DNA of 64,000 nt from contig JACEFZ010027934.1 in the NCBI GenBank assembly GCA_014155875.1, forward strand, positions 124,001 through 188,000. The letters are read 5' to 3'. A program made the translations under genes and the position numbers. Shown here in pieces: positions 710 through 29,895 of the stretch. A model generated the notes under the pieces. That model worked only from the letters and a program-made list of their open reading frames with translations, was not told where the DNA came from and made no database searches. This stretch comes from Cepaea nemoralis. Taxonomy: Eukaryota > Mollusca > Gastropoda > Stylommatophora > Helicidae. Each line of letters begins with the position of its first letter. Within the stretch, counting starts at the first letter, position 1.

Positions 710-823
710 ATGTTGGCAACGGAAAGAGAGAGGCGCTCCAATGCAGGAGGCAAGATGGCCAAACTTTTGGAAGCGGAAGATGAGGACGACTTTTATAAGA
801 CGACATATGGAGGATTTGAGGAG
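710..823 (+). CDS. VPS72: VPS72 exon 1 (codons 1-38)
   Basis: This exon encodes MLATERERRSNAGGKMAKLL and then the conserved acidic/aromatic H2A.Z-binding region ending YGGFEE. It ends GAG|GTAGTA in phase 0. A second in-frame ATG at codon 16 would still keep the conserved motif. Confidence 0.93.
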
Positions 824-3800
824 GTAGTATATTTTGTTCTATGTGGAGTTTCATTACTTGCAACATGCTTGGTGTGAGCTGGTATGTTAGTTCAAGCTCC
901 ACGCAAGCTCTGATCTGTTCTGGTCATGCTGGGCTATTTTGGATTATCTTGCTAGATTTGCTGATATTTATGCCTAGGGGCTGTGATAGTATGATGGATA
1001 GTCAACTTGCCTGCTGATTCACTGGTCCTGGGTTTAAACTCCCTTCAGTGTGAGTTTTTGTTTTCACGATCACATTTTTCCAGAACGATCAAACACTAAT
1101 AGCATAATCAGAAGCAGAATTACAAGTCCACATGAATAGTATAAACGAAGTGTGTAAGGAACATAACATAAAAATTAGCATCAGTAAAACAGAAGTAATG
1201 ACTATAAACAAAGAAGAAAAACAGCATAGATTCATCTAAAAGAACACCCCCTGAAACAAGTAAAGAGCTTCAAGTACTTAGGAAGTATAATATCATCAAA
1301 TGGCAAATCAGAAGACGAGATTGAAAGCCTGACAGCCCATAGGTCAGGTTTGAATTTGTATCCAGGCAGAATTTGAGTGGTCCTGGACTCCCATGTTGAC
1401 CTAGCCTAAACTGGGGGTACCAGGAAATGTCTGGGGAAGTCAAGGCGGCTGGTGCTAGCCTTGGGGAAATACTGTTGTTGTATTAGCTGTTTATCCCGTG
1501 CAGATCCTCATGTGACTGTTGTTGTATTAGCTGTTTATCCCGTGCAGATCCTCATGTGACTGTTGTTGTATTAGCTGTTTATCCCATGCAGATCCTCATG
1601 TGACTGTTGTTGTATTAGCTGTTTATCCCGTGCAGATCCTTATGTGACTGTTGTTGTATTAGCTGTTTATCCCGTGCAGATCCTCATGTTACTGTTGTAT
1701 TAACAAGAGCTGTTTATCCCGTGCAGATCCTCATGTGACTGTTGTATTAGCTGTTTATCTCGTAGAGATCCTCATGTTACTGTTGTTGTATTAGCTGTTT
1801 ATCCCATGCAGATCCTCATGTGACTGTTGTTGTATTAGCTGTTTATCTCATGCAGATCCTCATGTGACTGTTGTTGTATTAGCTGTTTATCTCGTGCAGA
1901 TCCTCATGTGACTGTTGTTGTATTAGCTGTTTATCCTGTGCAGATCCTTATGTGACTGTTGTTGTATTAGCTGTTTATCCCGTGCAGATCCTCATGTTAC
2001 TGTTGTATTAACAAGAGCTGTTTATCCCGTGCAGATCCTCATGTGACTGTTGTTGTATTAGCTGTTTATCTCGTAGAGATCCTCATGTTACTGTTGTTGT
2101 ATTAGCTGTTTATCCCATGCACATCCTCATGTTACTGTTGTTGTATTGGCTGTTTATCTCGTGCAGATCCTCATGTGACTGTTGTTGTATTAGCTGTTTA
2201 TCTCGTGCAGATCCTCATGTGACTGTTGTTGTATTAGCTGTTTATCCCATGCAGATCCTCATGTGACTGTTGTTGTATTAGCTGTTTATCTCGTGCAGAT
2301 CCTCATGTGACTGTTGTTGTATTAGCTGTTTATCTCATGCAGATCCTCATGTGACTGTTGTTGTATTAGCAAAAGCTGTATAGAACAGATCCTCATGTTA
2401 TTCTTGCTGCATTAACAAGAGCTGTCTCATGCAGATCCTCATGTTACGATTGTTGTATTAGCAAGAGCTGTTTATCTCATGCAGATCCTCATGTTGCGAT
2501 TGTTGTATTAGCAAGAGCTGTTTATCTCATGCAGATCCTCATGTTATTCTTCTTTTTTACTTTCAGGAGGAAGAGGACAAAGATTACAACTCATCCCAGT
2601 CAGATTCTGATGATATCATTGACTCTGATTTCAGCATAGATGAAAATGATGAGGTGAAGAGTGACAATGATGATGAAGGAAAACCAAAACGCAAGAAGAA
2701 AGGAGTTGTTACAAAAGCATACAAGGTATATAAGTATTATGTATGGTCTCATTATTAGTGCATTTAATTTTACAATGCTAAATATATTTAATGATAAACA
2801 TATCTATTCATAGCACTTATAAAACAGAACATGCACTGAAATTTGGAAGAAAAGGATATTAGATTCATTATTATTATGAGAGAATTCATCATGTGTGCGT
2901 ATTATGTTAGTTTTTTTAATCAACATGTGTGCGTATCATGTTAGTTTTTAGATTGTGGGATTTTGGTTGTAGAAAAGAAGTATAGACTAGAGAGAAACTT
3001 CATGTTCTAAATTAGTGAGTCTGTCATCAATGTGTCACCATCATAGTTTGCCATCTCACACAATTATGTCTTTGATCGAGTCTGTTCTTGTCATGATCAT
3101 GGTTTGCCACCTCACACAATTATGTCTTTGACTGAGTCTGTTCTTGTCATAGTTTGCCATCTCACACAATTATGTCTTTGATCGAGTCTGTTCTTGTCAT
3201 GATCATGGTTTGCCACCTCACACAATTATGTCTTTGACTGAGTCTGTTCTTGTCATAGTTTGCCATCTCACACAATTATGTCTTTGATTGAGTCTGTTCT
3301 TGTCATGGTTTGCCATATGTCTTTGACTGAGTCTGTTCTTGTCATGGTTTGCCATCTCACACAATTATGTCTTTGATTGAGTCTGTTCTTGTCATGGTTT
3401 GCCATCTCACACAGTTATGTCTTTGACTGAGTCTGTTCTTGTCATGGTTTGCCATCTCACACAGTTATGTCTTTGACTGAGTCTGTTCTTGTCATGGTTT
3501 GCCATCTCACACAATTATGTCTTTGATTGAGTCTGTTCTTGTCATGGTTTGCCATATGTCTTTGACTGAGTCTGTTCTTGTCATGGTTTGCCATCTCACA
3601 CAATTATGTCTTTGATTGAGTCTGTTCTTGTCATGGTTTGCCATCTCACACAATTATGTCTTTGATTGAGTCTGTTCTTGTCATGGTTTGCCATATGTCT
3701 TTGACTGAGTCTTTTCTTGTCATGGTTTGCCATCTCACACAATTATGTCTTTGATTGAGTCTGTTCTTGTCATGGTTTGCCATATGTCTTTGACTGAGTC

Positions 3801-6800
3801 TTTTCTTGTCATGGTTTGCCATCTCACACAATTATGTCTTTGATTGAGTCTGTTCTTGTTATGGTTTGCCATCTCACACAATTATGTCTTTGATTGAGTC
3901 TGTTCTTGTCATGGTTTGCCATCTCACACAATTATGTCTTTGATTGAGTCTGTTCTTGTTATGGTTTGCCATCTCACACAATTATGTCTTTGATTGAGTC
4001 TGTTCTTGTCATGGTTTGCCATCTCACACAATTATGTCTTTGATCAGTTCTTTTCTTATCCCGATATGCCATGTTTCTCCTCATCACACGGCCAGAAAGT
4101 CTTTACTGTCTGCTCATAATTTCTCTAATCAGTTTCTGGTTTTAATGTATTTCTTGAAGTAATATCTATTTGTTTCTCTGTCCACCCTTTCTGTTCTTTG
4201 CATATCCCTCAGAAACCACATGTCCACTGCCAGGAGATGATTCACAGTTTGCTGGATTATTGTCCATGTTTGACATGCCTACAACAGTATAGGTTCTATA
4301 TAGCTCTTGAACCACTCTTTTCAACACTGCAACTAACAGCTTTTTATGGGGAATATGTTGTGTGCCCACCATCTTGTTGGCTGACACCTGATTCTTCTGT
4401 CAGAGACCATGCCTTCTATTACTGTTCTGTCTAAATGACTGTGTGTGACATTTATGTGACCAAAGTATTTACGGGGAATATGTTGTGTGGGCACCATCTT
4501 TTTGGCTGACACTGATTCTTCTGTCAGAGACCATGCCTTCTATTACTGTCCTGTCTAAATTACTGTGTGACATTTATGTGACCAAAGTATTTACGAGGAA
4601 TATGTTGTGTGGGCACCATCTTTTTGGCTGACACCTGATTCTTCTGTCAGAGACCATGCCTTCTATTACTGTCCTGTCTAAATTACTGTGTGACATTTAT
4701 GTGACCAAAGTATTTCCATTTCTGAGACATGTTGCTGTTTGTGGACCAGTTCTCTTCGATGTTCAAACTCATATCCTCCAGTCTTAGGTGTTAATATGTT
4801 TACTGGTTAAGGTGTCTTTTTTAAAACACCAAAACAAGAGAAAGGATTTGACTGTAACTCAGAAAGTAGTTCTAGCTTGGATCATTCACTGCTTCGGAGA
4901 ATGTTAAATCAATGTTTCATTTTGTAGGATCCAAAAGGGGACAAGGAAAAGAGGCCTCCAACAAAGAAGTTAAAAATAGAAAAATCAACGGAGGTTCCGT
5001 CAGTTCAGATCTATGTATCTCCAGGTACACTGCATTATATTGTGAATGTTGAGTGGATCTCTGAGACACTTTGTCATGTTGTGAATGTTCAGTGGATCTC
5101 TGGGACACACTTCATCATGTTGTGAATGTTGAGTGGATCTCTAGGACACTTTGTCATGTGTGAGAAGTGTCAGAGTTAATGTATAATTGTGAAATGTACA
5201 AACTTCATCATAATGTGAATGTTGTGTGAAAAATGTCAGAGTTTGTGTGGGTGGTTGGGAGGGAGGGAGAGAAATGTAAAACTTCATCACTATTATGCAG
5301 TGTTACGTTGATTTCTGAGAGTTGGTGTGTTGTTTGTATGAAATGTACGAGCTGATTTGTAAGCTTGCTGACATGCTGGTGTGGTGGGAAACAAGTAGGC
5401 GGGCAGATTGGCTGGATCTGTATCATCAGAGTGGGGTATTGGTATGTGATAAGGCAGACATAGGTCGGGACTCTTTGGGATTGTGTGCATATTGTGGCGT
5501 GGAGAAAATAGTGCTGCAGGGAGTAACCAGAGGATCTGGTTGATGTTCAGGACTCGAAGACCGAGGTATACATAATCTGCTACTGGTACCATTAGTATTG
5601 GGACTCTTCACTGACAGTTGAAGATGAGGACAGGGCATGTATGATGAGAATGTCTGGAGTGCTATGATCTCTCTTCTTGACTTGACTCAACTCAGCTTGT
5701 ATGTTTGCTGTAAAACATGAGTGCTAGTGTTATGAATATTTCTTCTGACTCTTTTATCTTATGTTAGAGCATGGACATTTTATTGTTGTAGTTGCCCTCA
5801 TTGCTAGATTACCTACAGATAACATGTTTAGTGATGGTTTGTTGTTAGTTGTCTGGTCCGTTTGTATTTTGTTTGTTTATTTACACTATATGTGTCTGCA
5901 ACAAATATATTCATGAATATTTATCAATGAAAATGTTTCTTGAGTGCAGAAAGAAAGTCCGTGAGGCAATCAACAGCTCTAAAATCTGAAGCAGCATTAT
6001 CAAGGCAGAAGCTGGATCAACAGAGAGACAAGTTCCTTAAAGACATGGCGATCAAGAAAAATGTTTCTCACATTCGCAGGATGACCCAAGAAGAGCTTCT
6101 AGAGGAAGCCAAGATCACTGAAAAACAAAACATGAAAAGTTTAGGTAAGCATTTTCTGTCATGAATTATACTTACATGAAAAGTTTAGGTAAGCATTTTC
6201 TGTCATGAATTATACTTGCATGAAAAGTTTACGTAAGCATTTTATTTCACAAATTATACTTATTGTGTTAAGGCATTTGTGATTTGTGATTTTACTCTTT
6301 CTCTGTGTTTGACTATTCTTCATGTGTTCCAATCAATGTGTTTAAAGTGATTGTACTTCTTACCTCGACCAATATACAGTTGTTGGTTGGCAAGTGGTCT
6401 AGGGTTGAAGCTCTGATAAGCAGACAGTGAGAGCATTGCTTTGCTGATCCGACAGCTTCTGCAGCTTGTCTTATTCCAGATGTATGAGTGTTGTCTTTCC
6501 TCTGGAGTAAACTAGGCAAGCCTAGAGATGAATCATATGGCATGGGGAAAGCTTTGTGCTATAGAGAGGTATGACTCCATCCATGGTCTGGTTGTGTGCT
6601 ATGGAGAGGTATGACTCCATCCATGGTCTGGTTGTGTGCTATGGAGAGGTATGACTCCATCCATGGTCTGGTTGTGTGTGCTATAGAGAGGTATGACTCC
6701 ATCCATGGTCTTGTTGTGTGCTATAGAGAGGTATGACTCCATCCATGGTCTGGTTGTGTGCTATAGAGAGGTATGACTCCATCCATGGTCTGGTTGTGTG

Positions 6801-9800
6801 CTGTAGAGAGGTATGACTCCATCCATGGTCTGGTTGTGTGCTATAGAGAGGTATGACTCCATCCTTGGTCTGGTTGTGTGCTATAGAGAGGCATGACTCC
6901 ATCCATGGTCTGGTTGTGTGCTATAGAGAGGTATGACTCCATCCATGGTCTGGTTGTGTGCTATAGAGAGGTATGATGCCATCCATGGTCTGGTTGTGTG
7001 CTATAGAGAGGTATGACTCCATCCTTGGTCTGGTTGTGTGCTATGGAGAGGTATGACTCCATCCATGGTCTGGTTGTGTGCTATAGAGAGGTATATGACT
7101 CCATCCATGGTCTGGTTGTGTGCTATGGAGAGGTATGACTCCATCCATGGTCTGGTTGTGTGCTATAGAGAGGTATGACTCCATCCTTGGTCTGGTTGTG
7201 TGCTATAGAGAGGTATGACTCCATCCATGGTCTGGTTGTGTGCTAAGGAGAGGTATGACTCCATCCATGGTCTGGTTGTGTGCTATGGAGAGGTATGACC
7301 CCATCCATGGTCTGGTTGTGATTATGCCTTTTTTGAAACACAGCATAATAAACTATCATCTGCCAAGATGCTGGTGCAGTACTTCTTATGTTTAGACATA
7401 GAATGCTTGAGAAATCTGGCAATGTATTTGTTTATTTAACAAGGAGTGTATAGTTGGCCCATGTGGAAGTAAAGCACTATAAATGTTATCATTATTATCT
7501 CCATTGGGCAAATACAGGAATCTTCTGGGACTAGAGAGTGAAGTTTGTTTTGTTGATCCCTTTTGTCAATATATAAGTAACTTGTTTGTCATTATCATTT
7601 CATGCCAGATTGTGCTTTACCCCTGTGGCAAAATTGGTGGGGATGACTGCAAGGATGCTACCACACTGCTCCTATCTTATTGTCTATCTTTTCCTCAAGT
7701 TAAGTTCTGATGTCCCCTCGGGACTGCTACATATGCTTTCTTTCTTTAATTGCCCCGAATGCTGTGATGTCAGTTACTAAATCAATCAATCAATCAATCA
7801 ATCAATCTTTCTTTAATTAGCTCCCGTCAGTAACAAGATAGACACAATAAAGTCAAACCATTAACAATAATTTATTGAGGCACTGGTTCAATGAATGAAA
7901 AATAGCAAACACCCACAATTTACGAAGACAAATATATCAGACACTTAGTTGGAGGATGAGATGAGCTAGTCCAGTAAGAATGTTCATCATGGACACCATA
8001 AGAGTCTGCTGTCTTGTGTCTGTATTGTCTGGGAGGACAGACACTGTTCACCTTAGTTGTGTTTCGAATCCTCCTCCCTTGTAGATCCCTCAACCCCTAG
8101 GAAATTGCAGCCCAGTCCTCAGATATCTTCTGTTCAAAGATTTGGGTGATTCGAACTTCAAGCGAAATCTTGACGCGACAAACTTCTTCACTCAAAAGGT
8201 GCATTTAAAATGGTTGATTGTTTATCTTCAAACACCATCTTGAGGCAACAAACTTCTTCACTCAAAAGGTACATTCAAAAAGGGGTAACCTGAAACAAAC
8301 AACTCTAGGATAGTCTTCTGAACCAGCCCATTTTAAACATAACCTGAAACTCAACTGTTTTCTTCTTATGGTGAGTCTCGGAGATATGGGCATCTTTTAA
8401 TAAACATGTGTAATTATGGATGCCATGCTGCACTGAACATCACTCCTAAACATGGCAGAAGATAATGACAGTGGTGTCTATGCTTCTTCTTTACCTCTTC
8501 GGGGAATCAGTCACTGTCTAGTATAGTGTTGATACTGGAACATACTTTCCTAGTTGAATACCTTGTTTTCTGATCAAGTTCCCTTCTAAGAGCCAGATCT
8601 TGACATTATGAACCAGACCAGCTACAGAAGTAGTGAAGTTATAGTGAAGAATTCCTTAGACCACTTGGCTCTGTTAGAGTGGATAATCCTCCCTATGTGG
8701 TTATGTTTATCTGGGTTGACCTGCCCCAGGAAATGTTAGATTTATATAGATAGAAGTTGTTGTCTCCCAATGTGGAGTCTGTATATGTAGATATGGAAGA
8801 CACTAGTAAAGACTATTAGCTGGTACCCAATCCTTTCAGTATTACATTGATTAATGGTGAGAAAGATTGGTAGCTTTTATTGATAGTGCTTTCCAATCTA
8901 TTAAAGTACTATTAAACCTTCTATATTATATGTACATAGAATCATCTTTTATGAAGATATCCTGTCGGTCTTAATTGGATTCACACCTCAAGGTATGGTC
9001 GCAGGAGGTTATCATATCTCTGGATTGCTCAAGGAAGAGTCAGTGATCGTACAGAACTTCATAACGGCACAAGCTGATGATAATTCTTTCTTCCTTTCGA
9101 AATGTCCCGAGTATGGATTTAAATTACAACGTTCAGAATAAGAAAAGCCATGACATAGACTATTAGGTATATAGAAGAATGCCTGCAGAACGATTCCTGT
9201 ATTTAAAATGCTGAAATATTATTAATCTAATTCCAGCACCCTCGGTATTTGCTTGACAGAACCCACCGAGCCGACTTTTGTTTACATTTTCAATCCGCGC
9301 ATGCGTACTGCTGATCGGTTAGAATAAGTTATGTTTCGAGAATGTTTCTTCTCGAAAAATATAATTTAAATTCATTTAAACATAAGAGCATTTACATTCA
9401 TTATGAGAAATAAGACAGAATCTCCTTGAAGTCAGATGTACATCACTAGTAGTAGATACAACTCTATGCTTGCATATACTGCTTCAGGAAATTTGTGTTG
9501 CCCTCTTAGAAGTGATTTTCCCTGGGAAGGTTAACCCGGTCAACAAATGCCCGCAGAAGTTGGATGTGTCGGCCTAATGGCGCAAGAACGCAGCTCTGCT
9601 GTAAACATGCACAACACAATCACGTCAGGAAAAAAACTCTGGATGAACGCAGAAGAAGAAAAAAGAAGAAGTGATTTTCACAATGGCTGGACTGAGATCG
9701 GTACCAGCTGTTTTATGATTTCTCTAAAAAGTTGCTCCGGCTTGTCAGGAACAATTAAGTGGAGAAGTTGTGTTTGCACGCATAAAGATACTTTTTAGAA

Positions 9801-12800
9801 TAAAGACTATAGAATCCCAGAGAAAATGATGAATTCATCTTTATATAATTCATGCCTTCACTGGGGTTTAGAGAATTAACGCTTCGTGACCACGTATAAA
9901 GTACATAGAAAGTCGTGAAAATGGCACAAAATATGCATTGTTTGCCATATTATGGTTACTAAACAGTTTATTCTGTTTTGTAGAACTATTTAGTATGTCC
10001 ATTTGCACAAGTGGATTATATTTTGTTCCAAATGATAATTTGTTGTAAATGTTTACCAGAAAATTACCAGAAGTTGGAGCTGGAGAAAAAACGGGCGAGG
10101 GTAGTTAAACAAGGCGTATCATGGACCCATCATCCGCTACCACTCTCTCACGATGCCTTTAATTGAAGAGTTACCCTATGAACCAGACGTTGATGTTGAT
10201 TCTGAAGAGTGAGTACTCATATCTGTACCTGTTTATTTGTACTCACCAGTGTGTTACCCAGGCTTGCCAGGGCAGCCAAGAATAGTAACATTGTAACCTA
10301 CCTGGCATATTGTAAGAGATGACTGATGAGTTAAGCGATTGTAGTGGTGTGTGTCTTGAAAGGTCGCATGATGATTCCTGACAATAGGCTTTCCCAGCTA
10401 ATGAAAGTTAGTCAGGCAGAGTGACTGTCAAATGTACTACTAGATGACCAGTGGTGTGGAGTGGGTGATTTCTGCACGCCTCCCTGTGGTTTACGGTCTC
10501 CACTGTGGTGAAACTTGCTGAGAATCACACACCCTGCACACTTGGTGACTGAGAGTGAGTTCCAGCACATCCCTTCAATGATGGTAGACATTCAGCACCC
10601 AAGTCTTGCACTCACACTTGGTGACTGAGAGTGAGTCCCAGCACATCCCATCAATGATGGTAGACATTCAGCACCCACGTCTTGCACTCACACTTGGTGA
10701 CTGAGAGTGAGTCCCAGCACATCCCATCAATGATGGTAGACATTCAGCACCCACGTCTTGCACTCACACTTGGTGACTGAGAGTGAGTCCCAGCACATCC
10801 CTTCAATGATGGTAGACATTCAGCACCCAAATCTTGCACCCACACTTGGTGACTGAGAGTGAGTCCCAGCACATCCCTTCAATGATGGTAGACATTCAGC
10901 ACCCAAATCTTGCATCCACACTTGGTGACTGAGAGTGAGTCCCAGCACATCCCTTCAATGATGGTAGACATTCAGCATCCAAATCTTGCATCCACACTTG
11001 GTGACTGAGAGTGAGAACCAGCACATCCCATCAATAATGGTAGACATTCAGCACCCAAATCTTGCATCCACACTTGGTGACTGAGAGTGAGTCCCAGCAC
11101 ATGAATTCAATGATGGTAGACATTCAGCACCCAAATCTTGCATCCACACTTGGTGACTGAGAGTGAGTCCCAGCACATGAATTCAATGATGGTAGACATT
11201 CAGCACCCAAATCTTGCATCCACACTTGGTGACTGAGAGTGAGTCCCAGCACATGAATTCAATGATGGTAGACATTCAGCACCCAAATCTTGCATCCACA
11301 CTTGGTGACTGAGAGTGAGTCCCAGCACATGAATTCAATGATGGTAGACATTCAGCACCCAAATCTTGCATCCACACTTGGTGACTGAGAGTGAGTCCCA
11401 GCACATCCCTTCAATGATGGTAGACATTCAGCACCCAAGTCTTGCACTCACACATGGAGACCTCAGGGATATGATCGAAATGAGTGTGTTGTTTGCCTGA
11501 TGTCCTGACTTGTATTTAATAGACAGACATAATGTAGACAAAGTGTTGTTATCAGGATTAATAGTAAGAAAAGGCAAGTTTCAGTAGTAGCAACCAAACA
11601 CAGGTATGAAGGTGGTATCACAAATGTGGGTTTGTGAGTAGTAGTAGATGGGTTGCACTGAAAGTGTCACGAGAAGGAGAGATATGGCAGGAATAACTAG
11701 GATCACGAGAATATCGCTCCCACATTCACAGGGATACAAGTCAATGTGGCAAATTGTAGCGAGAATTATCAGCAAAATTTAATTAGATTTAATAAATTTA
11801 TTTGATTAATTGATTGAAACACATGCACTTTGTATAAAATATGCACTGAAGTGGCTATTGGGAAAGCCAGGTATCTTTGATGTTTTGACCAAACGTACAA
11901 AAGTGAGATGAGTTTGATGTGATGGTAGGAATTAATAGAGAAGAGAGTCCCATATTGTTTTGAGAAGCATAAATTAGCTTGAGGTTGCTAATATCACAGT
12001 AGACTTTGTCCTGTAATGGACTCGGTGGGTTATGAGTAATGGACTCGGTGGATTATAGCTTTGTCCTGTAATGGACTTGGCGGATTATGACTTTGTCCTG
12101 TAATGGACTTGGCGGATTATGACTTTGTCCTGTAATGGACTCTGTGGATTATGACTTTGTCCTGTAATTCTGATTACGATATGGAATATTGCTTGGCTAG
12201 CGAATAAATTACGTAGAAAGTCTGAATCAAAAGCTCACTGTCTAGATGTCATATGCAGACTGCATTCTTCTGGTTTCCGGAGGAACAGCCTGTGGTGAAC
12301 GGAAGGCCCAATATACAGAAGTGAGGCTAAGAGCAGCCATGTGCAGGATGTGATGATGTGCTATGTGCCAGCTCTGGAATTATGGAAGATTCATTGAATG
12401 GCGGGGAATCAATGGTCTGCCCCTGCCTTCCCTTGAGGGCCAACTGGGATGTGTTCAGCTGTTTTAAATGGGCCAGCTGGTATGGAAGGATGAAGATAAC
12501 ACCACAACATTGAGAGTGGAACGTCCTACGAAACACCCAGGAAGGTTAACCCGGTCAGCAAATGCCTGAAGAAGTCAGATGTTCCTGCTGCACAACGCAA
12601 TTATGCCCAAAGCAAACATTTGAGACGAGCGAAGAAGAAGAAGATGCTGTTCATATATTGTCTGAGGTGGCTCCTGGGGATGATCAGATTTAGAAACTAA
12701 GATCTACATTTACAATCAACAGTTAAGGCAAATCAGAGAGTTCTCCTACTTGAGAAGTACAAATAATTCATGCAAAAGCTGGGTGTTGAAGCAGTAAAAC

Positions 12801-15800: not shown

Positions 15801-18800
15801 CCTTGCCATCAGGTGAACCCACTCCGACTTCAGAGGCACTTGTAATTAATGCCCCAAAATCAAAGACAATAGGTCAACATTTTAGTCCAACTGTCTGGTG
15901 TAGAGGTTGAACCCTATACATCGGCATCAGTTCACTGGATATTTAAGAACACGCGTTTCTTATCCATTCGGCCATGCAATGTTCTATATAGGACACACAA
16001 CTAGCTCAACATAAGCAGATCAGGTAATCAAGTGATAGAGCATGTCAGTCAGCTGTGAATTGATGAAGGTTTCACATATGCTAGATCATAGTTTTATCAT
16101 GTGCTTTGTTTCCCACCAGTTTGTCTTTTCTCAACTTGAATCAAAGTTTGAATCCCCCTGGGATTGGTAGATCTTCTGATGTCATTCACAGTCTGCTACC
16201 TAGTTCAGTTTTATAATGTCATATTGTATTTGCACAATAATTATTTCATTTTGAACTTTAATAATTGTAGTAATGTTAAAACCTTGTTCTATTGACTGAT
16301 TAAAACAAAGAAGCAGGAAAAAGGCAAATAAAACTGAAACGAAAGTAGCAGAAGGACCCTGAATGACTCTGAAGAAGATGTTTGACGCTCGCATGTTTGA
16401 TTGAATAGATACACATCTCGTGTTTCCAACAGAGTTACTGAGACCAAGAAGCCAGAGTTATCTGTCGATGAGAAATGTGAAAGAACATTCATTACTTTCA
16501 CAGATGAAGCAACGTTTAAAGAAATATTCCCTCAAATGTAAGTATTGCTAATAGGAAACTATTAGTCCATTGCTAATTTAACATTATTAGTTAAGCACAG
16601 AATGTGTGTAGTTCTGTAATCAACATATATAATTCCCCCTACTCTGTCTATGGCTTAAAGTGGTAGAGGGGTTTGAGTGTTCCAATGACCCCAAGAGCTA
16701 TACCAATGGTAGCACAGTTACTGCTATAATCTCCCATGTCAGACAGGTCAAGGGATAGGAACCAGACTAAGAGAGACACAAACCTTCTGCCTTGTAGATA
16801 GACTGAGGACAGTCAAAGGCTGGGAAATCAAACCTGAAGGAATGTTTGTGGAAGTTGCATGTACTCATCCACGGGCGTAATACGGTGCAATTCACTTTAT
16901 TGTCTTTTATTTTTTGTGTTTGCTCGCTTTGAACTCAAGCGTAGTCCATACACATGCTACTACTTCTAATGCACTGGACTGATTTTTGTGTGTGGATTAG
17001 CTTTCCCTATTACCAGTGTCCCTCGCCATCAGGCCAACCCATTCCAACTTCAGAGGTACTTGAATTTACGTCCCCCAAGTCAAGGACGAGACGTCAACAT
17101 TTTAGTCCAACTGATCGGTGTAGGGATTGAACCCACTACCTCGGCATCAGCACAACAGATGTTTAAGAACAAGCACGCTGATCCATTCTCCATGGTGACC
17201 TCCAATTATTCACTGTATGATGTCAGTATATATGATTACATCATGATGTCTTCTGTGTTCTGCAGTCTGTTTTACAGTTTGCCTGTTTCCTTGATTTAAA
17301 TAATGTTTCAGGCCAGGTCTCTTGGATTGAAGCATTTCATGTTTACATCTGCATTTACTTTCCTTTCAGAAAAGGCAAACCACCAAACAGATCCTTATGT
17401 CCAGTAACCAAGTTAGCAGCCAAATACTTTGACCCAATCACACAGGTATGTCCAGCTTTATCTCAATCACACAGGTATGTCCAGTTGTGACCCAACCACA
17501 CAGGTATGTCCAGCTGTGACCCGATCACACAGGTATGTCCAGCTTTGACCTGACCACACAGGTATGTCTAGCTTTGACCCGATCACATAGGTATGTCTAG
17601 CTGTCACCCAATCACACAGGCATGTCCAGCTGTGACCCAACCACACAGGTATGTCCAGCTGTGACCCATCCACACAGGTATGTCCAGCTGTGACCCAACT
17701 ACACAGGTATGTCCAGTTGTGACCCAACCAGACAGGTATGTCCAGCTGTGACCCAACCAGACAGGTATGTCCAGCTGTGACCCAACCAGACAGGTATGTC
17801 CAGTTGTGACCCAACCACACAGGTATGTCCAGTTGTGACCCATCCACACAGGTATGTCCAGCTGTGACCCAACCAGACAGGTATGTCCAGTTGTGACCCA
17901 ACCACACAGGTATGTCCAGTTGTGACCCATCCACACAGGTATGTCCAGCTGTGACCCATCCACACAGGTATGTCCAGCTGTGACCCAACCAGACAGGTAT
18001 GTCCAGTTGTGACCCAACCAGACAGGTATGTCCAGCTGTGACCCAACCAGACAGGTATGTCCAGCTGTGACCCAACCAGACAGGTATGTCCAGCTGTGAC
18101 CCAACCAGACAGGTATGTCCAGCTGTGACCCAACTACACAGGTATGTCCAGTTGTGACCCAACCAGACAGGTATGTCCAGCTGTGACCCAACCAGACAGG
18201 TATGTCCAGCTGTGACCCAACTACACAGGTATGTCCAGTTGTGACCCAACCAGACAGGTATGTCCAGCTGTGACCCGATCACACAGGTATGTCCAGTTGT
18301 GACCCAACCAGACAAGTATGTCCAGCTGTGACCCAACTACACAGGTATGTCCAGTTGTGACCCAACCAGACAGGTATGTCCAGCTGTGACCCGATCACAC
18401 AGGTATGTCCAGCTGTGACCCAACCACACAGGTATGTCCAGCTGTGACCCAACCAGACAGGTATGTCCAGCTGTGACCCAACTACACAGGTATGTCCAGC
18501 TGTGACCCAACCAGACAGGTATGTCCAGCTGTGACCCAACTACACAGGTATGTCCAGTTGTGACCCAACCAGACAGGTATGTCCAGCTGTGACCCAACCA
18601 CACAGGTATGTCCAGCTGTGACCCAACCAGACAGGTATGTCCAGCTGTGAGGTGTGAAGTCAATAACAAGATATTCTGACCTTTACTTCCAAGACATGTC
18701 CTGGTACCCATGTTAAGGCTGAGTGGACCCGGGATCTATTCTAGACCTGGGATCTATTCTAGACCCGGGATCTATTCTAGACCTGGGATCTATTCTAGAC

Positions 18801-19270
18801 CTGGGATCTATTCTAGACCCGGGATCTATTCTAGACCGCAGAGATATTAGGTGGGGTAAGCATGTCCCTGTCTGACTGTCTTTCCTTCCCAGACAGTTCT
18901 GACAAATGTCTGGCAGCCATTTCTATGAGCTGTGTTGAGCAATGCTAGCAAGAAAGAACAACCCTGTCTTGTGTGGACATGCATTGTATGTTAAAGAGGT
19001 CATAGAATGATCCGTTTGTCCATCCACAGACACCATATGCCACTGCTCAAGCATTGTATGTTAAAGCGGTCATAGAATGATCCGTTTATCTATCCACAGA
19101 CACCATATGCCACTGCTCAAGCATTCCACCTGATTCGAGAAGCATACACTCGCCAGCTGGCCAACGAAAGCAAACATCGGTCAGCCAGTCCTGTGAACAC
19201 AAATAGCCAGAGAAAGAAAGAGAAAGAGAAATCGTCAGGCTCTCCTCAAATGTTGGTGACGTCTGCGTGA
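710..19270 (+). CDS. VPS72: VPS72/YL1, H2A.Z chaperone subunit (whole gene, 8 coding exons)
   Basis: Joining eight exons gives a protein of about 354 residues, close to the 364 of human VPS72. In this family the protein is a nuclear subunit of SRCAP- and TIP60/EP400-type complexes and chaperones H2A.Z-H2B through its acidic N terminus. Seen here: the N-terminal motif DDFYKTTYGGF (about residues 26-36), an acidic stretch (39-75), a basic KKKGVVTKAYK segment (about 81-91), RKSVRQST and TQEELLEEAKITEK in exon 4, GPIIRYHS plus MPLIEELPYEPD in exon 5, and the C-terminal YL1-C domain (CPVTKLAAKYFDP then TPYATAQAFHLIREAY) split between exons 7 and 8. Every junction is GT-AG and phases agree, except for one surplus base inside exon 5. 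The start chosen is the first ATG in frame; it precedes the conserved N terminus by 25 codons. Family assignment is secure; gene activity is inferred. Confidence 0.95.
1076..1330 (+). mobile_element. LINE-C fragment, part of reverse transcriptase
   Basis: Broken frames encode NDQTLIA*SEAELQ, NEVCKEHNIKISISKTEVMT and SFKYLGSIISSNGKSEDEIE, the palm-to-thumb region after the catalytic FADD box of a LINE. The FADD position itself reads QND and there are in-frame stops, so it is dead. A sister copy lies at 52590-54545. Confidence 0.75.
1471..2546. repeat. 44-bp minisatellite, about 24 copies (VPS72 intron 1)
   Basis: The unit is ACTGTTGTTGTATTAGCTGT followed by TTATCCCGTGCAGATCCTCATGTG. It runs to about 20 bases before the exon 2 acceptor. 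Each unit contains a pyrimidine-rich GTGCAG, an acceptor-like site. Confidence 0.95.
2567..2725 (+). CDS. VPS72: VPS72 exon 2 (codons 39-91)
   Basis: The acceptor is TTTACTTTCAG and the donor is AAG|GTATAT. The exon encodes a strongly acidic segment with DSDDIIDSDFSIDENDE, followed by basic KPKRKKKGVVTKAYK, the same order as in human YL1. Both ends are phase 0. The intron 1 minisatellite stops about 20 bases before the acceptor. Confidence 0.93.
3043..4060. repeat. 51-bp minisatellite with deletion variants (intron 2)
   Basis: The unit contains TGCCATCTCACACAATTATG and TCTTTGATTGAGTCTGTTC. Shorter variants lacking the CTCACACAATT segment alternate with full units, giving a simple higher-order pattern. 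About 20 copies. Confidence 0.95.
4348..4713. repeat. Triplicated 122-125-bp unit (intron 2)
   Basis: Three near-identical copies starting with GGGGAATATGTTGTGTG at about 4348, 4473 and 4595. No coding content is seen. Confidence 0.9.
4928..5024 (+). CDS. VPS72: VPS72 exon 3
   Basis: The acceptor is TTTTGTAG and the donor is CCAG|GTACAC. It encodes a lysine-rich linker (DPKGDKEKRPPTKKLKIEK) and ends in phase 1, matching the exon 4 start. This linker is poorly conserved in the family, so the call rests on splice sites and phase. Confidence 0.85.
5035..5160. repeat. About three copies of a 44-bp unit (start of intron 3)
   Basis: GTGAATGTTGAGTGGATCTC followed by a GACACTTTGTCATGTT variant is repeated three times, beginning about 10 bases after the exon 3 donor. 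Confidence 0.85.
5440..5640. repeat. Degenerate interspersed repeat fragment, related to 55600-55780
   Basis: The stretch CTGCTACTGGTACCATT...GGGACTCTTCACTGACAGTTGAAG near 5577-5625 matches GATTGCTACTGGTACCCCTT...GGGCTCTTCGCTGGCAGCTG near 55642-55690. It probably derives from a LINE 3' region. The family is not identified. Confidence 0.5.
5950..6144 (+). CDS. VPS72: VPS72 exon 4
   Basis: The acceptor is TGAGTGCAG and the donor TTAG|GTAAGC. The exon encodes ERKSVRQSTALKSEAA and MTQEELLEEAKITEKQN, close to the RKSMRQST and TQEELLREAKITEE blocks of human YL1. It ends in phase 1. The last 14 bases and the donor are repeated twice more immediately downstream. Confidence 0.94.
6131..6262. repeat. 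Three 44-bp copies spanning the exon 4/intron 4 junction
   Basis: The unit CATGAAAAGTTTAGGTAAGC plus 24 bases starts at 6131, 6175 and 6219. Copy 1 contains the true donor (TTAG|GTAAGC at 6145), copy 2 an identical one (6189) and copy 3 TTAC|GTAAGC (6233). Use of the copy 2 donor would add 44 bases and a stop (TGA at about 6163). Confidence 0.95.
6556..7320. repeat. 40-bp minisatellite, 19 copies (intron 4)
   Basis: The unit is GCTATAGAGAGGTATGACTC followed by CATCCATGGTCTGGTTGTGT. Each unit carries AGAG|GTATGA, a fair 5' splice-site match on the gene's strand. Confidence 0.95.
7321..9507. other. Intron 4 stretch, mostly unassigned
   Basis: 7779-7807 is a (AATC)n run that looks like the 3' tail of an element covering roughly 7600-7778, family unknown. 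8157-8290 holds an imperfect direct repeat of about 66 bases around AACTTCTTCACTCAAAAGGT. Nothing else is recognised. Confidence 0.5.
9521..9666 (+). mobile_element. 5'-truncated (GAA)n-tailed retroelement copy
   Basis: This 146-bp copy (GGGAAGGTTAACCCGGTCAA to GAACGCAGAAGAAG) is flanked by a perfect 13-bp duplication, AGAAGTGATTTTC, at 9508-9520 and 9667-9679. The same 3' end occurs at 12265-12643, 15640-15791, 57202-57342 and, inverted, 62049-62190. The duplication shows retrotransposition into intron 4. Confidence 0.85.
10060..10208 (+). CDS. VPS72: VPS72 exon 5, with one surplus base
   Basis: The upstream frame reads ENYQKLELEKKRARVVKQ, matching the ETYERLEADKKK region of human YL1. The downstream frame reads GPIIRYHSLTMPLIEELPYE, also conserved, but is shifted by one base. 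The switch lies between about 10103 and 10118, most simply one extra G at 10113-10114. Read straight through, the frame stops at a TGA soon after (10160s). The donor is AAGA|GTGAGT and its phase fits exon 6 once the extra base is discounted. A sequencing/assembly indel is the likeliest cause; a real loss-of-function allele is possible. Confidence 0.85.
10537..11455. repeat. 76-bp minisatellite, 12 copies (intron 5)
   Basis: The unit starts CACACTTGGTGACTGAGAGT and contains GAGA|GTGAGTCC, closely resembling the true exon 5 donor AAGA|GTGAGTAC 330 bases upstream. An ATGAATTC versus ATCCCTTC variant is confined to consecutive central units, showing local homogenisation. Confidence 0.95.
12002..12168. 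repeat. About 33-bp tandem repeat, 5-6 copies (intron 5)
   Basis: TGTCCTGTAATGGACTTGGC plus GGATTATGACTT is repeated with point differences. Confidence 0.85.
12265..12643 (+). mobile_element. (GAA)n-tailed retroelement, longer partial copy
   Basis: It matches the last 380 bases of the 14140-15791 element (AAGAGCAGCCATGTGCAGGA, GGTTAACCCGGTCAGCAAATG) and ends GCGAAGAAGAAGAAG. It has diverged markedly. No clear target duplication is seen. Confidence 0.7.
13048..13290 (-). mobile_element. Fused LINE-C and LINE-B C-terminal fragments
   Basis: On the minus strand, 13170-13290 encodes WGHVVRTNKLENLVTTGKID plus GKRTRGRQRNKY, the C terminus of LINE-B. It then runs directly into the LINE-C 3' end (13048-13169), which ends in the family's GAGATGAGA tail. 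The fusion point lies in a GAAGAAGAGGCAGAGG-like stretch shared by both. Confidence 0.7.
13775..14015 (+). mobile_element. Degenerate SINE, family 2
   Basis: A head of about 70 bases (GGCTTAGGGGTTAGTGAATG...) is present twice in tandem. It is followed by GTTCAGAAAGCAGACTGAAC and CTACCTAGTAAATCA, which match the body of the family 2 SINEs at 26215, 56545 and 56790. Confidence 0.6.
14024..15982 (-). mobile_element. SINE family 1, interrupted by a 1.65-kb insertion
   Basis: The 3' half is at 14024-14139 and the 5' half, ending in the tRNA-like head (GGCCATGC), at 15792-15982. Removing 14140-15791 and one target duplication restores SINE continuity, so the SINE is the older element. Confidence 0.85.
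14140..15791 (+). mobile_element. Non-autonomous (GAA)n-tailed retroelement, apparently full length
   Basis: The element begins CCCCCGATGTGTCTCCACC and ends (GAA)n. It is bounded by a perfect 12-bp duplication, AATACTGTCCCT (14128-14139 and 15792-15803). No reverse transcriptase or endonuclease frame is visible, so it presumably uses a partner LINE's machinery. Internal direct similarity between about 14870-15130 and 15430-15700 suggests a partial internal duplication. A related 5' region lies at 16634-16870. Confidence 0.8.
16433..16537 (+). CDS. VPS72: VPS72 exon 6
   Basis: The acceptor is TTTCCAACAG and the donor AAAT|GTAAGT. It encodes ERTFITFTDEATFKEIFPQ, equivalent to RTFITFSDDATFEEWFPQ in human YL1. 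It ends in phase 2, completed by the first base of exon 7. Confidence 0.94.
16634..16870 (+). mobile_element. 5' part of a relative of the 14140-15791 element
   Basis: GGGATAGGAACCAGACTAAG followed by AGAGACACAAACC and GACTGAGGACAG matches 14240-14300 of the long element. It lacks the 3' (GAA)n end. Confidence 0.6.
16905..17200 (-). mobile_element. SINE family 1, near complete (intron 6)
   Basis: The T-rich start (reverse of the A-rich tail), the conserved body and the tRNA-like head (reverse complement of B box and CCATGGAGAATGG) are all present within 300 bases. Confidence 0.8.
17370..17445 (+). CDS. VPS72: VPS72 exon 7 (first half of the YL1-C domain)
   Basis: The acceptor is TTTCCTTTCAG. 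The exon encodes KGKPPNRSLCPVTKLAAKYF plus DPITQ and ends CAG|GTATGT in phase 0. Its last 15 bases plus this donor are the seed of the 29-bp array that fills most of intron 7. Confidence 0.94.
17431..18650. repeat. 29-bp minisatellite of the exon 7/intron 7 junction, 42 copies
   Basis: The unit reads GACCCAACCACACAG|GTATG followed by TCCAGCTGT. The first unit is the end of exon 7 plus the true donor (17446); the second donor follows at 17475 and about forty more after it. The period is not a multiple of three, so downstream donors mostly shift frame. TGA in GTTGTGACC or CTGTGACC supplies early stops. Units vary at CCACAC/CCAGAC/CTACAC and AGCT/AGTT, in short runs of like copies. Confidence 0.97.
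18725..18836. repeat. 18-bp minisatellite, about 6 copies (intron 7)
   Basis: GACCCGGGATCTATTCTA and GACCTGGGATCTATTCTA alternate. Confidence 0.95.
18981..19126. repeat. 70-bp tandem duplication covering the exon 8 acceptor
   Basis: Units start GCATTGTATGTTAAAG at 18981 and 19051. The upstream copy holds CATCCACAG|ACACCATATG and the first 26 bases of exon 8 (19030-19055), directly followed by GTATGT, a donor-like site. This creates a possible 26-base mini-exon ahead of the true exon. Confidence 0.92.
19100..19270 (+). CDS. VPS72: VPS72 exon 8 (end of YL1-C domain, tail and stop)
   Basis: The acceptor is CTATCCACAG. The exon begins TPYATAQAFHLIREAY, completing the YL1-C domain, then a low-complexity Ser/Lys-rich tail (QRKKEKEKSSGS) and a TGA at 19268-19270. 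The acceptor and the first 26 bases of the exon are duplicated 70 bases upstream. Confidence 0.94.
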   Translation, partial: TPYATAQAFHLIREAYTRQLANESKHRSASPVNTNSQRKKEKEKSSGSPQMLVTSA

Positions 19271-19440
19271 TCCCAGACACATCTTGTTGTTATGTTCATA
19301 TGTGAATACTTATTTGCCATTGCCGTCTGCTGTCACTTGGTTAGTTCCATTAAGAGATGTATAAAGAACATGTTTACCAGATTATATTGTCAGTTATTGG
19401 CTCAAGTGCTTCATGTAACATGTTTGTTTGTTTGTTGTAA

Positions 19441-23690: not shown

Positions 23691-24291
23691 TATGCACAAG
23701 TGTTCTCAGTGTGTCTCACATCTTGTCCTCATCATGTGATTCACATATACACAAGTGTTCTCAGTGTGTCTCACATCTTGTCCTCATCACGTGATTCACA
23801 TATACACAAGTGTTCTCAGTGTGTCTCACATCTTGTCCTCATCACGTGATTCACATATACACAAGTGTTCTCAGTGTGTCTCACATCTTGTCCTCATCAT
23901 GTGATTCACATATACACAAGTGTTCTCAGTGTGTCTCACATCTTGTCCTCATCATGTGATTCACATATACACAAGTGTTCTCAGTGTGTCTCACATCTTG
24001 TCCTCATCATGTGATTCACATATACACAAGTGTTCTCAGTGTGTCTCACATCTTGTCCTCATCACGTGATTCACATATACACAAGTGTTCTCAGTGTGTC
24101 TCACATCTTGTCCTCATCACGTGATTCACATATACACAAGTGTTCTCAGTGTGTCTCACATCTTGTCCTCATCACGTGATTCACATATACACAAGTGTTC
24201 TCAGTGTGTCTCACATCTTGTCCTCATCACGTGATTCACATATACACAAGTGTTCTCAGTGTGTCTCACATCTTGTCCTCATCACATGATT
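23691..24291. repeat. 55-bp minisatellite, 11 copies
   Basis: The unit is CACAAGTGTTCTCAGTGTGT then CTCACATCTTGTCCTCATCACGTGATTCACATATA. Copies are almost identical apart from CACGTG/CATGTG. Confidence 0.95.
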
Positions 24292-24536
24292 CGCCGATGT
24301 TTGTTTGTTTCTTTCCTTTACTTCACAAAGGTGATTACCTGTAATATCTAGGAAATTCACGGGTGTGGTGAAAGGTGAATTTGGTAGCAGGATTGAAACT
24401 CAACTGTCAGAGTTCCACCACCTTCATGGCTGCCCTAGACAGTAAACATACTATCAGTGCTCTCATCCTGACAACCACTATCTGCTACAGACACACACAT
24501 TCTCACAGCTGTCTTCTTCATATGTCTTATAACACC
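24292..24536. other. Unassigned spacer
   Basis: No coding or repeat signal is recognised beyond a short GTTTGTTTGTTT run. Confidence 0.4.
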
Positions 24537-26015
24537 CTAGTATAACAGCCAGTCCCTTTTTGGTAGATCAGTATATTCCACATGGCTAATAACAATTGCC
24601 ACACCATTCATTACGATTACTGAGTCATGTAGTATTGATTTTTGCATTTTCCCCATGCCTTTATAATTAGTCTTTCCTCTTGAGCCTAAGGCGGCGCATA
24701 GGGCAGAAGTCATGTCTCTCCATGCTTGGCGGTTCGCTGCTACCTGTTGTAGATCTTGGATATTTACTTGGCCATTGAATGAGCCTTCTCTAATGATGGT
24801 TCTACGCAGGGTCTCTCTTGGTCTTCCCCGTTTTCTTTTCCCTACTGTTGACCATATGAGGGCTTGGTATCTTGACTTGTCCATTCTGAGTACATGGCCG
24901 ATGTAGTTCCAACGGCGTCTTCTTATGAAATTGGATACTGTATCTTGCTTAGTCTCTTGTCTTATTTGTGAATTGGTTCTGAAGTCTGTCCAGTGGATGT
25001 TTAGAAGTCTTCTAAGACATTTGTTCTCAAAATTGTCTAATTTTTTTTATCTAAAGCTACCGTTGATGTCCAACTTTCACATCCATACGTTAACACTGGA
25101 ATCACACAAGAGTTGAAGATTTTAAGTTTTGTGTGTTTGCTGAATGTCTTTGACTTCCAGATGTTTGACAGTTTATTGAAGGCACTAGATGCCAGTGCGA
25201 TTCTAGATGATATTTCTGGTGTTGAGTCCCCTGTAGATGTCATTTTGCTTCCTAGGTATGTAAAGCTGTTGACTTTTTCAAGAACGTAGCTGTTCAATTT
25301 GGTGTCATCTGAACTGTTGGTAAGATCAATAGTCTTTGTTTTTGTGGTGTTAATTTGGAGACCAATTTGCCCTGAAACATTTTGGAGGTGTATTTTCTCT
25401 TGGGCATCCGGGTGTGTTGAACTCAAAAGCACTATGTCGTCGGCAAAGTCCAGGTCTTCTAGAATTTTGTCAACCCAATGGATACCCATATTTGTGTTGT
25501 TTGTGCATTTGCGCATGACCCAATCGATAGCTATTCCAAAAAGCATCGGTGATAAGACACAACCCTGTTTCACTCCTGTTTCGACTGAGAACCAGTCAGA
25601 ATTGCCTGTTTCTGTTCTTACGCAGCAACGTGTTTCTTTGTAGAAAGATTTTATGACGTTGGTATATTTGGTAGGACAACCATAGATGTTAAGTAGATTC
25701 CAAAGTGAAGGACGGTGGATGTTGTCGAAGGCTTTTTGAAAGTCGACAAAGTTGGTGTTTAATTTCGACTGGAATTCTACGGAGTCTTCAATGATTATTC
25801 TGAGGGTGAAAATGTGGTCTATGCATGACCGTTTTGGTCTGAAGCCTGCTTGTTCTTCTCTGAGCCTTTCATCTATCGCCTTTTTCAATCTCTCAAGTAA
25901 CATGCTACAAAAAAGTTTTCCTGGTACTGATAATAGAGTGATACCACGCCAATTATTGCAATCAGACATATCGCCCTTTTTGGGCGCCCTTTTTATAATG
26001 CATATCTTTTATATT
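24537..26015 (-). mobile_element. LINE-A: 5'-truncated reverse transcriptase with one frameshift
   Basis: The frame 25037-25969 (310 codons) carries the RT blocks: DCNNWRGITLLSV, EEQAGFRPKRSCID, FVDFQKAFDNIHR, GVKQGCVLSPMLF, the catalytic DFADDIVLLSS, and SFTYLGSKM. The reading frame breaks in an 8-T run at 25036-25043, then resumes to the tail ending GKRKRGRPRETLRRT (24537-24884). The 5' end is cut at about 26015, within the GDMSDCNNW motif's upstream segment. Only the frameshift and truncation separate this from a functional C-terminal half. The clade (RTE- or CR1-like) is not settled. Confidence 0.9.
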
Positions 26016-28446: not shown

Positions 28447-29895
28447 ACCCCCGGTCCAGACAGCGTCACAACAGAAATGATTAATGCTTTAGAAGAATAT
28501 GGAATAGATAAAGTTACCAGCCTGCTTAATACAATATATGATACTGGAAATATACCTCATGAATTATGTAATTCTGTATTTATTGCAATCCCAAAGAAAT
28601 CAGGAGCCTTGGAATGTGATCAACATCGAACAATTAGTATAATGAGTCACATCACGAAGATTTTGCTAAGAATTATCATGCAAAGAGTTAGGAGGAAAAT
28701 ACAACCTGAAATAGGAGAAGAACAATGTGGGTTTGTAGTAGGCAAGGGTACAGTAAATGCTGAGAACCGTAATCGAACGTTCTATAGAAGTAAACAAAGA
28801 TCTACACCTTTGCTTTATTGACTACACAAAGGCTTTTGATAAAGTGAGACATGTCAACATGATAAGGATGCTTGAAGATCTACAAATTGATGGGAAAGAC
28901 CTTAGACTTGTAAAAAACATATATTGGAAACAACAAGCTGCCATAAGAGTTGATAATGAAGTAAGCCAATATCAGCCTATTAAGAGAGGTGTGAGACAGG
29001 GATGTGTAATGTCTCCAGATCTGTTTTCCCTGTACAGTGAAAATATTTTCAGAAATATTGAAAATATGGAAGGAATCAACATTGGGGGACGATGCATCAA
29101 TAACATTAGATATGCAGATGATACAGTCTTGATTGCAGACAATGAACAGGATCTGCAAAATTTAGTAGATGCGGTTGTTACACACAGTGAACAACAAGGG
29201 TTAGAATTAAATTGTAAAAAGACACAGATTATGGTCGTCACTAGGAAGAACGAAATACCACAGTGTAATATACAAGTAAATGGGAATATTCTTCAACAAG
29301 AGAATATGTACAATTATCTCGGAACAGTAATAACATCTGATGGGAGATGCCTTGAAGAGATTAGAACAAGGATCGCCATGGCAAAAGTAGCCTTTAGCAA
29401 GATGAAAAACATACTGACCAATAAAAAGATGTCAATTGAAACGAGAAAAAGAGTGTTGAGATGCTACATAGAACCTGTACTTTTATATGGATGTGAAGCT
29501 TGGACAATGAGCAGCCAGGCTGAAAAACATCTGATGGCTGTAGAAATGTGGTTTCTGAGGAAAATGCAAAGAATACCATGGACAGCCAGAAAGACCAATG
29601 AACAAGTCCTTCAAGAAACAAATGAAGATCGTAAACTGATCGGAGACATTAGACGTAGACAGTCACAATTTTTTGGGCATGTTATGAGAAGAAATGATTT
29701 GGAGAACTTGGTGACAACTGGTAAGATCGAGGGGAACAGACCAAGGGGAAGACCTAGAAACAAGTATCTGGATGGCTTGGCCTTGTGGCATGGTCGAGAC
29801 AGAAACACGGAACTGATCCACGACTCTGTTGATCTAGTGAGATGGCAGAACATGACCGCCCACGCTTACCGGCATGGCACATGATGGATGGATGG
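28447..29895 (+). mobile_element. LINE-B, 5'-truncated insertion with target duplication
   Basis: A perfect 11-bp duplication, ATACATAGAAT, flanks it (28436-28446 and 29896-29906). It starts in the RT domain (PGPDSVTTEMINALEEYG), loses frame near 28757, then continues for 375 codons: LCFIDYTKAFDKV, GVRQGCVMSPDLFS, catalytic RYADDTVLIAD (about 29107-29139), NYLGTVITSDGR, LYGCEAWTMS, and a C terminus ending MTAHAYRHGT. The 3' tail is (GATG)n. The EN domain and RT N terminus are missing, so this is a dead-on-arrival copy. Confidence 0.92.

What the first reader, a model, noticed from the sequence alone, without database searches (positions are those of the whole stretch)
17431..18650. A minisatellite amplified from an exon/intron junction of VPS72
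The 29-bp unit consists of the last 15 bases of exon 7 plus the first 14 of intron 7, so a CAG|GTATGT donor is present about 42 times in a row. The exon encodes half of the YL1-C domain. Only the first donor gives a normal protein; later ones add 29n bases and meet TGA within one or two units. Either the spliceosome reliably picks the most upstream donor, or array length and donor choice tune VPS72 output through nonsense-mediated decay.
Basis: partly seen in the sequence, partly recalled or inferred. Interest (0 to 1): 0.82.

Follow-up and report, generated by a model that had tools for sequence, protein, structure and literature searches.

The report
Splice-donor minisatellite in a VPS72 gene
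In an animal gene for the chromatin protein VPS72, a 29-base piece straddling the end of one exon and the start of its intron is repeated 42 times, so the splicing machinery faces about 40 equal cutting sites in a row; only the first gives normal protein, shorter cases of the same kind are known in people, and the likeliest outcome is that the first site is simply used and the rest are discarded.

Summary
In detail: 42 units of 29 bp (17431-18648), each the last 15 bases of VPS72 exon 7 plus the first 14 of intron 7; 39 of 42 carry an identical CAG|GTATGT. The gene is VPS72, and the exonic part encodes DPITQ, with D and P kept in 59 of 59 aligned homologues, so the exon is the source. Only donor 1 gives normal protein, but a 50-nt NMD rule covers only donors 5-42. 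Two more junctions of this gene are repeated: the exon 4 donor (44 bp x3) and the exon 8 acceptor (70 bp x2). Junctions are not favoured: 3 of 14 lie in arrays, 4.4 expected. Published tests of two equal donors show the first is used (PMC9225289, PMC6783452), so I expect donor 1 to win and the array to leave with the intron. Human CBS has the same kind of thing (31-bp VNTR across a donor; acceptor duplication). A new, long member of a known kind, and a good natural test of donor choice. No RNA evidence was available.

The parts
17431..18648 (+). 42-unit, 29-bp minisatellite; each unit = 15 nt exon-7-derived + 14 nt intron-7-derived, carrying a donor; 39 of 42 donors CAG|GTATGT
17370..17445 (+). 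VPS72 exon 7 (76 nt); its last 15 nt are the start of the array; encodes ...FDPITQ of YL1_C
17446..17451 (+). donor 1 (gtatgt), the only one giving the normal protein; highest of the gene's 7 donors by a recalled consensus matrix (9.65 against 4.18-9.57)
17488..17490 (+). in-frame TGA met by every modelled transcript that uses donor 3 or later
18981..19120 (+). 70-bp tandem duplication (2 copies, 3 mismatches) across the intron 7/exon 8 acceptor; the word GCATT starts each copy and follows the second; only the second acceptor gives the normal protein
19100..19273 (+). VPS72 exon 8, last coding exon (as listed: coding part, stop at 19268-19270, plus 3 nt); AATAAA at 19441
6130..6261 (+). 44-bp x3 tandem triplication across the exon 4/intron 4 donor; donors TAG|GTAAGC, TAG|GTAAGC, TAC|GTAAGC; donors 2 and 3 read into a TGA
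5950..6144 (+). VPS72 exon 4
710..823 (+). VPS72 exon 1 (coding part)
2567..2725 (+). VPS72 exon 2
4928..5024 (+). VPS72 exon 3
10060..10208 (+). VPS72 exon 5, with one base too many for the reading frame between about 10116 and 10123
16433..16537 (+). VPS72 exon 6

Best explanation
A tandem duplication, perhaps between a short similar word in exon 7 (CTTTGA) and one in intron 7 (CTGTGA), copied the exon/intron junction; the copy then grew to 42 units by ordinary minisatellite slippage or unequal exchange, in a gene about a third of which is such arrays. Because every copy lies downstream of the original donor, the exon stayed whole. On transcription, exon 7 (76 nt, between introns of 832 and 1654 nt) is recognised across the exon: U1 at the donor nearest the exon's own acceptor, donor 1, pairs with it, and the array leaves with intron 7. 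Shown: array, junction origin, coding consequences, gene identity. Inferred: breakpoint mechanism, exon definition in this animal, use of donor 1, little or no use of the others.
For: Array anatomy. The exonic part encodes DPITQ: D 59/59, P 59/59, T 58/59 aligned homologues (on the alignment; the homologues are not independent of one another), so the exon came first. The first 7 units are 7 different types, 6 of them found nowhere else, while later units share variants, as for an array that turns over away from the exon; distance to consensus falls along the array only weakly (Spearman -0.30, P 0.056). Breakpoint similarity CTTTGA/CTGTGA, 5 of 6, and perfect GCATT at the acceptor duplication. 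Arrays cover 32% of the gene but only 56 of 1069 exonic bases, which is the sum of the overlaps at the three junctions (16+15+25). Donor core not more often hit than the rest: 3 of 9 core columns vary against 12 of 20 others, Fisher P 0.25, so no sign that downstream donors are costly and being weeded out. Literature: upstream of two identical donors used exclusively in five exon-definition minigenes (PMC9225289); 'first come-first served' for equal tandem donors (PMC6783452).
Against: No RNA data: which donor is used was not observed. The rule was tested in human cells with two donors, not 42, and not in this animal; when both donors were weakened, the larger-exon minigenes skipped the exon. 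The classical intron-centric rule (Reed and Maniatis, as told in PMC9225289) predicts the opposite, and about 60% of all human alternative-donor events there prefer the downstream site before strength is matched (after matching, 60% upstream). For acceptors of comparable strength the preference for the upstream site is only reduced under exon definition, and tandem-acceptor libraries show no first-site rule, yet this gene needs the downstream one. Predicted accessibility of donor 1 is not robustly better than the rest (rank 17, 10, 4 and 2 of 42 under four settings). The breakpoint similarity is short and could be chance.
Confidence: 0.8

Rival explanations
1. The array is a tunable dial: a steady fraction of transcripts uses later donors, giving nonsense transcripts that are degraded (donors 5-42) or truncated YL1-C proteins (donors 2-4), so array length sets VPS72 output.
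For: 39 of 42 donors are identical to donor 1 or are donor 1, so equally strong. 38 of 42 would give a stop 50 nt or more before the last junction. A published association (title only: Lievers 2001, in the reference list of PMC2630376) links the 31-bp CBS VNTR to reduced CBS activity.
Against: No conservation of the donor core beyond neighbouring columns (its 9-column window ranks 5 of 29). Equal tandem donors favour the first. From donor 9 on the exon would exceed 300 nt (sizes), and smaller exons are preferred (PMC9225289 section 7). No length-polymorphism data.
Confidence: 0.1
2. This VPS72 copy is broken or dying (exon 5 frameshift) and the repeats are tolerated for that reason.
For: One base too many in exon 5 between KQ and GP, which 7 of 7 relatives read that hold this region space by three codons.
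Against: All other exons are open in the exon model, the seven introns begin GT and end AG, and both Pfam domains score above cut-off (135.9 against 29.2 and 40.2 against 22.6 bits). A single-base error in the assembly explains the base as well; how the assembly was made is unknown.
Confidence: 0.06
3. Recursive or dual-site splicing: the AG|GT in the units also acts as an acceptor, so the array is removed stepwise, as dual-specific sites act in UBC.
For: Most units hold AG|GT, the motif of dual-specific sites (UBC precedent, PMC10809524). By pyrimidine count the array (mean 10.8 of 20) overlaps the gene's weaker acceptors (9 and 11), and its longest pyrimidine run (4) is no shorter than those of the exon 5 and exon 8 acceptors (3).
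Against: The sequence before each AG|GT is T-poor: mean 2.9 T of 20 in units 2-42 against 7-15 in the gene's acceptors. Even if it happened, fully stepwise removal would leave the same mRNA.
Confidence: 0.03
4. Assembly artefact: the array is not in the genome at anything like this length.
For: Nothing direct; the excess base in exon 5 may be an assembly error.
Against: 16 different unit types in interleaved order and a fixed 29-base register are not what a simple collapse or inflation usually gives. The exact copy number may still be off.
Confidence: 0.02

Closest known systems
Human CBS 31-bp VNTR, c.1444_1467+7(16_21), at exon 13/intron 13
   Same: Minisatellite of similar unit size; by its published name (passages of PMC2630376) the unit is 24 coding bases plus the first 7 of the intron, 16-21 copies; location also in a table of PMC1395315. 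That each unit repeats the donor is my reading of that name.
   Different: Here 15 + 14 bases, 42 copies, another gene and very likely another phylum; polymorphism unknown.
Human CBS 844ins68 (duplicated intron 7/exon 8 junction)
   Same: 68-bp tandem duplication of an intron/exon junction; the more distal site is strongly favoured and normal mRNA results (passages of PMC2630376; that text says 'donor', the cited Romano title says 3' splice site).
   Different: Here 70 bp, VPS72; use of the second acceptor is inferred, not measured.
Internal tandem repeats at exon-intron boundaries in human segmental duplications (PMC2812944)
   Same: Minisatellites of about 30 bp at exon-intron boundaries that alter splicing or form introns; 27 intron modifications (abstract and passages).
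   Different: Those repeats average 4 units, and 66% of the intron cases also have a transcript that keeps the repeat; here 42 units and every modelled retained form is nonsense.
UBC dual-specific splice-site array (PMC10809524)
   Same: Tandem array of AGGT sites in one gene (abstract and one section).
   Different: UBC units are coding, 228 nt, in frame, and the sites act as both donor and acceptor; here units are 29 nt and out of frame, with no evidence of acceptor use.
Introns from tandem arrays (Zhuo et al. 2007, PNAS)
   Same: Splice sites multiplied in tandem arrays; only the title was seen, in a reference list; content recalled.
   Different: There new introns arise; here an existing intron grows.

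Membership tests
VPS72/YL1 gene | YL1 N-terminal and YL1_C domains in one gene | tested here: met
   PF05764 E 3.3e-39 and PF08265 E 2.7e-10; human VPS72 chain 8qr1_S E 1.1e-23 and 1.9e-36
VPS72/YL1 gene | one open reading frame across the exons | tested here: not met
   one base too many in exon 5; the pieces before and after it are open. Error or real, unknown
Junction-spanning VNTR (CBS 31-bp type) | unit contains exon end plus intron start with the donor | tested here: met
Junction-spanning VNTR (CBS 31-bp type) | many tandem units of minisatellite size | tested here: met
   42 units of 29 bp
Junction-spanning VNTR (CBS 31-bp type) | copy number varies among individuals | not testable with these tools
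   one assembly only; the genome search on the own assembly did not answer in 12 tries
Junction-spanning VNTR (CBS 31-bp type) | alternative use of the repeated donors in RNA | not testable with these tools
   no RNA reads
Dual-specific splice-site array (UBC type) | AG|GT usable as an acceptor (polypyrimidine tract) | tested here: inconclusive
   T-poor (mean 2.9 of 20 against 7-15), but pyrimidine count and longest run overlap the gene's weaker acceptors; a sequence criterion only
Dual-specific splice-site array (UBC type) | unit length keeps the reading frame | tested here: not met
   29 nt is not a multiple of 3; stops in all three frames of the array

The most novel reading that the evidence does not exclude
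The array is a working U1-binding platform: about 40 strong, equal donors packed every 29 nt recruit many U1 particles to one intron, and array length sets how often a later donor is taken, giving a heritable, quickly mutating dial on VPS72 (and so, from recalled knowledge of VPS72, on H2A.Z loading) through nonsense transcripts and YL1-C truncations. Nothing here excludes it; nothing here shows it.
Probability: 0.06. Interest if true: 0.75.

Novelty: new member of a known kind. Interest (0 to 1): 0.42.

Why it matters
In the two studies I saw, the rules of donor choice were tested with pairs of sites. Here nature offers 39 identical donors in a row in a conserved gene, with only the first giving normal protein, plus an acceptor duplication in the same intron where the last must be chosen. 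Counting junction reads would test whether cross-exon proximity alone decides, how use decays in 29-nt steps, and whether minisatellite growth at junctions is neutral. It also shows arrays that reach exon edges in a repeat-rich gene while the exons themselves stay almost free of them.

Tried and rejected
Junctions as preferred sites of repeat birth: not supported. 3 of 14 coding-exon junctions lie in arrays; circular shifts of the array map give a mean of 4.4 (P of 3 or more 0.83), and 845 of 2532 non-junction gene positions, against 3 of 14 junctions, have a copy of 19 or more of 24 bases within 300 bases. The array map was hand-picked from the TRF rows (22 arrays in the window; in the gene I left out the extension 2371-2551 and a 28-bp AATC run), so 32% coverage is slightly low.

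Selection keeping the donors: tested by column variability; not supported. The raw cell counts (3 of 378 core against 62 of 840 other) look striking, but variants are shared between units and the quiet block extends beyond the core.

RNA structure hiding later donors: not robust to window settings. Donor-like motifs as a theme of this gene's arrays: sense-strand sites recur at 6555-7320 (17) and 10537-11461 (11, plus 3 antisense), but 23691-24292 has 11 antisense, and 14 of the 22 arrays have none on either strand. The matrix was recalled, not fetched.

Relatives' DNA: the unit was not found in viral contigs, as expected for animal DNA. Rfam (gathering thresholds) and ARAGORN scans of the window: 0 hits. 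Homologues: 59 of 66 hits were aligned; the seven weakest, P0060-P0066 (no YL1_C domain listed), were left out; six of these were read and lack the junction, P0061 was not read. The Zhuo 2007 and Lievers 2001 papers are not held. Four paper searches for junction-spanning minisatellites found 0, 1, 0 and 1 papers, none opened; I make no claim that such cases are unpublished.

Full report
What is there. The window's first 19.4 kb hold a VPS72 (YL1) gene on the + strand with eight coding exons: 710-823, 2567-2725, 4928-5024, 5950-6144, 10060-10208, 16433-16537, 17370-17445, 19100-19273. The two translated pieces match PF05764 YL1 and PF08265 YL1_C and human VPS72. The best hit with an organism name in the protein search is from the sea slug Plakobranchus ocellatus (66% identity over 62% of the query), so a gastropod is likely; the species was not identified.

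The array. 17431-18648 is 42 units in a fixed 29-base register. Each unit is the last 15 bases of exon 7 and the first 14 of intron 7. The donor 9-mer is CAG|GTATGT in 39 of 42; units 6, 7 and 31 differ by one base each. There are 16 unit types; units 1-7 are seven different types, six of them found nowhere else, and later types recur in interleaved order. Of the gene's seven donors this one scores highest by a recalled matrix (9.65; exon 4's is 9.57).

Direction of origin. The exonic 15 bases encode DPITQ. In 59 aligned homologues D and P are kept in 59, T in 58, and I or V in 55 (alignment). The exon is therefore old and the array derived from it. At the two ends of the array the exon reads CTTTGA and the intron CTGTGA, a possible slippage site; weak evidence on its own.

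Coding consequences. Donor 1 with the second exon-8 acceptor gives the normal C-terminus. Donor 2 shifts the frame and stops in exon 8. Donors 3-42 stop at TGA 17488-17490. If exon 8 is last, as the AATAAA at 19441 suggests, the stop lies 13 and 42 nt before the junction for donors 3 and 4 and 71 nt or more for donors 5-42, so a 50-nt rule marks 38 of 42 for decay and leaves donors 2-4 as truncations of YL1-C. Whether this animal's NMD follows that rule is not known.

More of the same in this gene. The intron 7/exon 8 acceptor is duplicated as a 70-bp tandem (18981-19120, 3 mismatches), with GCATT at both boundaries; only the second acceptor gives normal protein. The exon 4/intron 4 donor is triplicated as a 44-bp unit (6130-6261); donors 2 and 3 read into a TGA. 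In all three cases the site that keeps the protein is the one bordering the unique exon: first donor, first donor, last acceptor. That is what selection would leave (inference).

Is it special? By number of junctions, no. The listed arrays cover 32% of the gene; 3 of 14 junctions fall inside arrays against 4.4 expected under circular shifts. Exons are nearly free of repeats (56 of 1069 bases, the sum of the overlaps at these three junctions). The junction repeats look like spill-over from a repeat-rich gene, filtered by selection on the protein.

How it most likely works. The seven introns are 832-6224 nt and exon 7 is 76 nt, the setting in which exons are recognised as units. With two identical CAG|guaagu donors, all five human minigenes used the upstream donor exclusively (PMC9225289: abstract, passages and sections 7-9 seen), and a large designed library reports that the first of two equal donors is favoured (PMC6783452, passages). 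The older intron-centric rule predicts the reverse (told in PMC9225289), so this gene is a sharp test. The lack of any excess of broken donors agrees with later donors being harmless, though homogenisation could hide it. For the acceptor pair the literature gives less comfort: among human events of comparable strength the upstream preference is reduced, not reversed, under exon definition, and no first-site rule holds for tandem acceptors in the library; but human CBS 844ins68 is a junction duplication in which the distal site is strongly favoured (PMC2630376). RNA folding did not single out donor 1 robustly. Use of the AG|GT units as acceptors is not excluded: they are T-poor, yet their pyrimidine count overlaps the gene's weaker acceptors.

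Comparison. The human CBS gene carries both kinds of change: a 31-bp VNTR of 16-21 units across an exon/intron junction and a 68-bp acceptor-junction duplication (PMC2630376 passages; PMC1395315 table). Human minisatellites at exon-intron boundaries are a described class (PMC2812944 abstract and passages). The VPS72 array is a new and long member of a known kind. I cannot say it is the longest.

Limits. No RNA, no second individual, no relative's DNA; the own-assembly search did not complete (12 calls). One excess base in exon 5 (about 10116-10123; the 7 relatives read that hold this region space KQ and GP by three codons) is either an assembly error or a real frameshift, and warns that the exact copy number may be uncertain. 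In checking this report I lowered the claim against dual-site splicing from 'not met' to 'inconclusive' and its rival's odds rose from 0.02 to 0.03.

Noticed in passing
window 10116-10123: VPS72 exon 5 holds one base too many for its frame, between KQ and GP that relatives space by exactly three codons; assembly error or true frameshift.
   Followed up: partly
window 6130-6261: Second junction-spanning array in the same gene: 44 bp x3 across the exon 4 donor, third copy with an altered donor (TAC|GTAAGC).
   Followed up: yes
window 18981-19120: 70-bp duplication of the exon 8 acceptor junction with GCATT at both boundaries; resembles human CBS 844ins68.
   Followed up: yes
window 6555-7320 and 10537-11461: Intronic arrays of 40 and 76 bp whose units carry sense-strand donor-like sites (17 and 11 sites above the cut; best GAG|GTATGA and AGA|GTGAGT); no junction origin was seen.
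   Followed up: partly
window 1471-2551: 44-bp array in intron 1 ending close to the exon 2 acceptor; its units hold an acceptor-like stretch such as TTTATCCCGTGCAG.
   Followed up: no
window 59453-64000: Very long 24-26 bp arrays, with a non-repeat segment present twice (ORFs at 60811-61173 and 62663-63067 largely identical), running to the window end.
   Followed up: no
window 25037-26008, 28757-29884, 47176-47760, 42879-44654: Three ORFs with reverse transcriptase (RVT_1) and one hAT-like transposase ORF (DUF4371 plus Dimer_Tnp_hAT); mobile-element remains beside the gene.
   Followed up: partly
window 30632-31702: 356-aa ORF with a sub-threshold GIY-YIG match (21 bits, cut-off 22.6), perhaps a Penelope-like element (recalled).
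   Followed up: no
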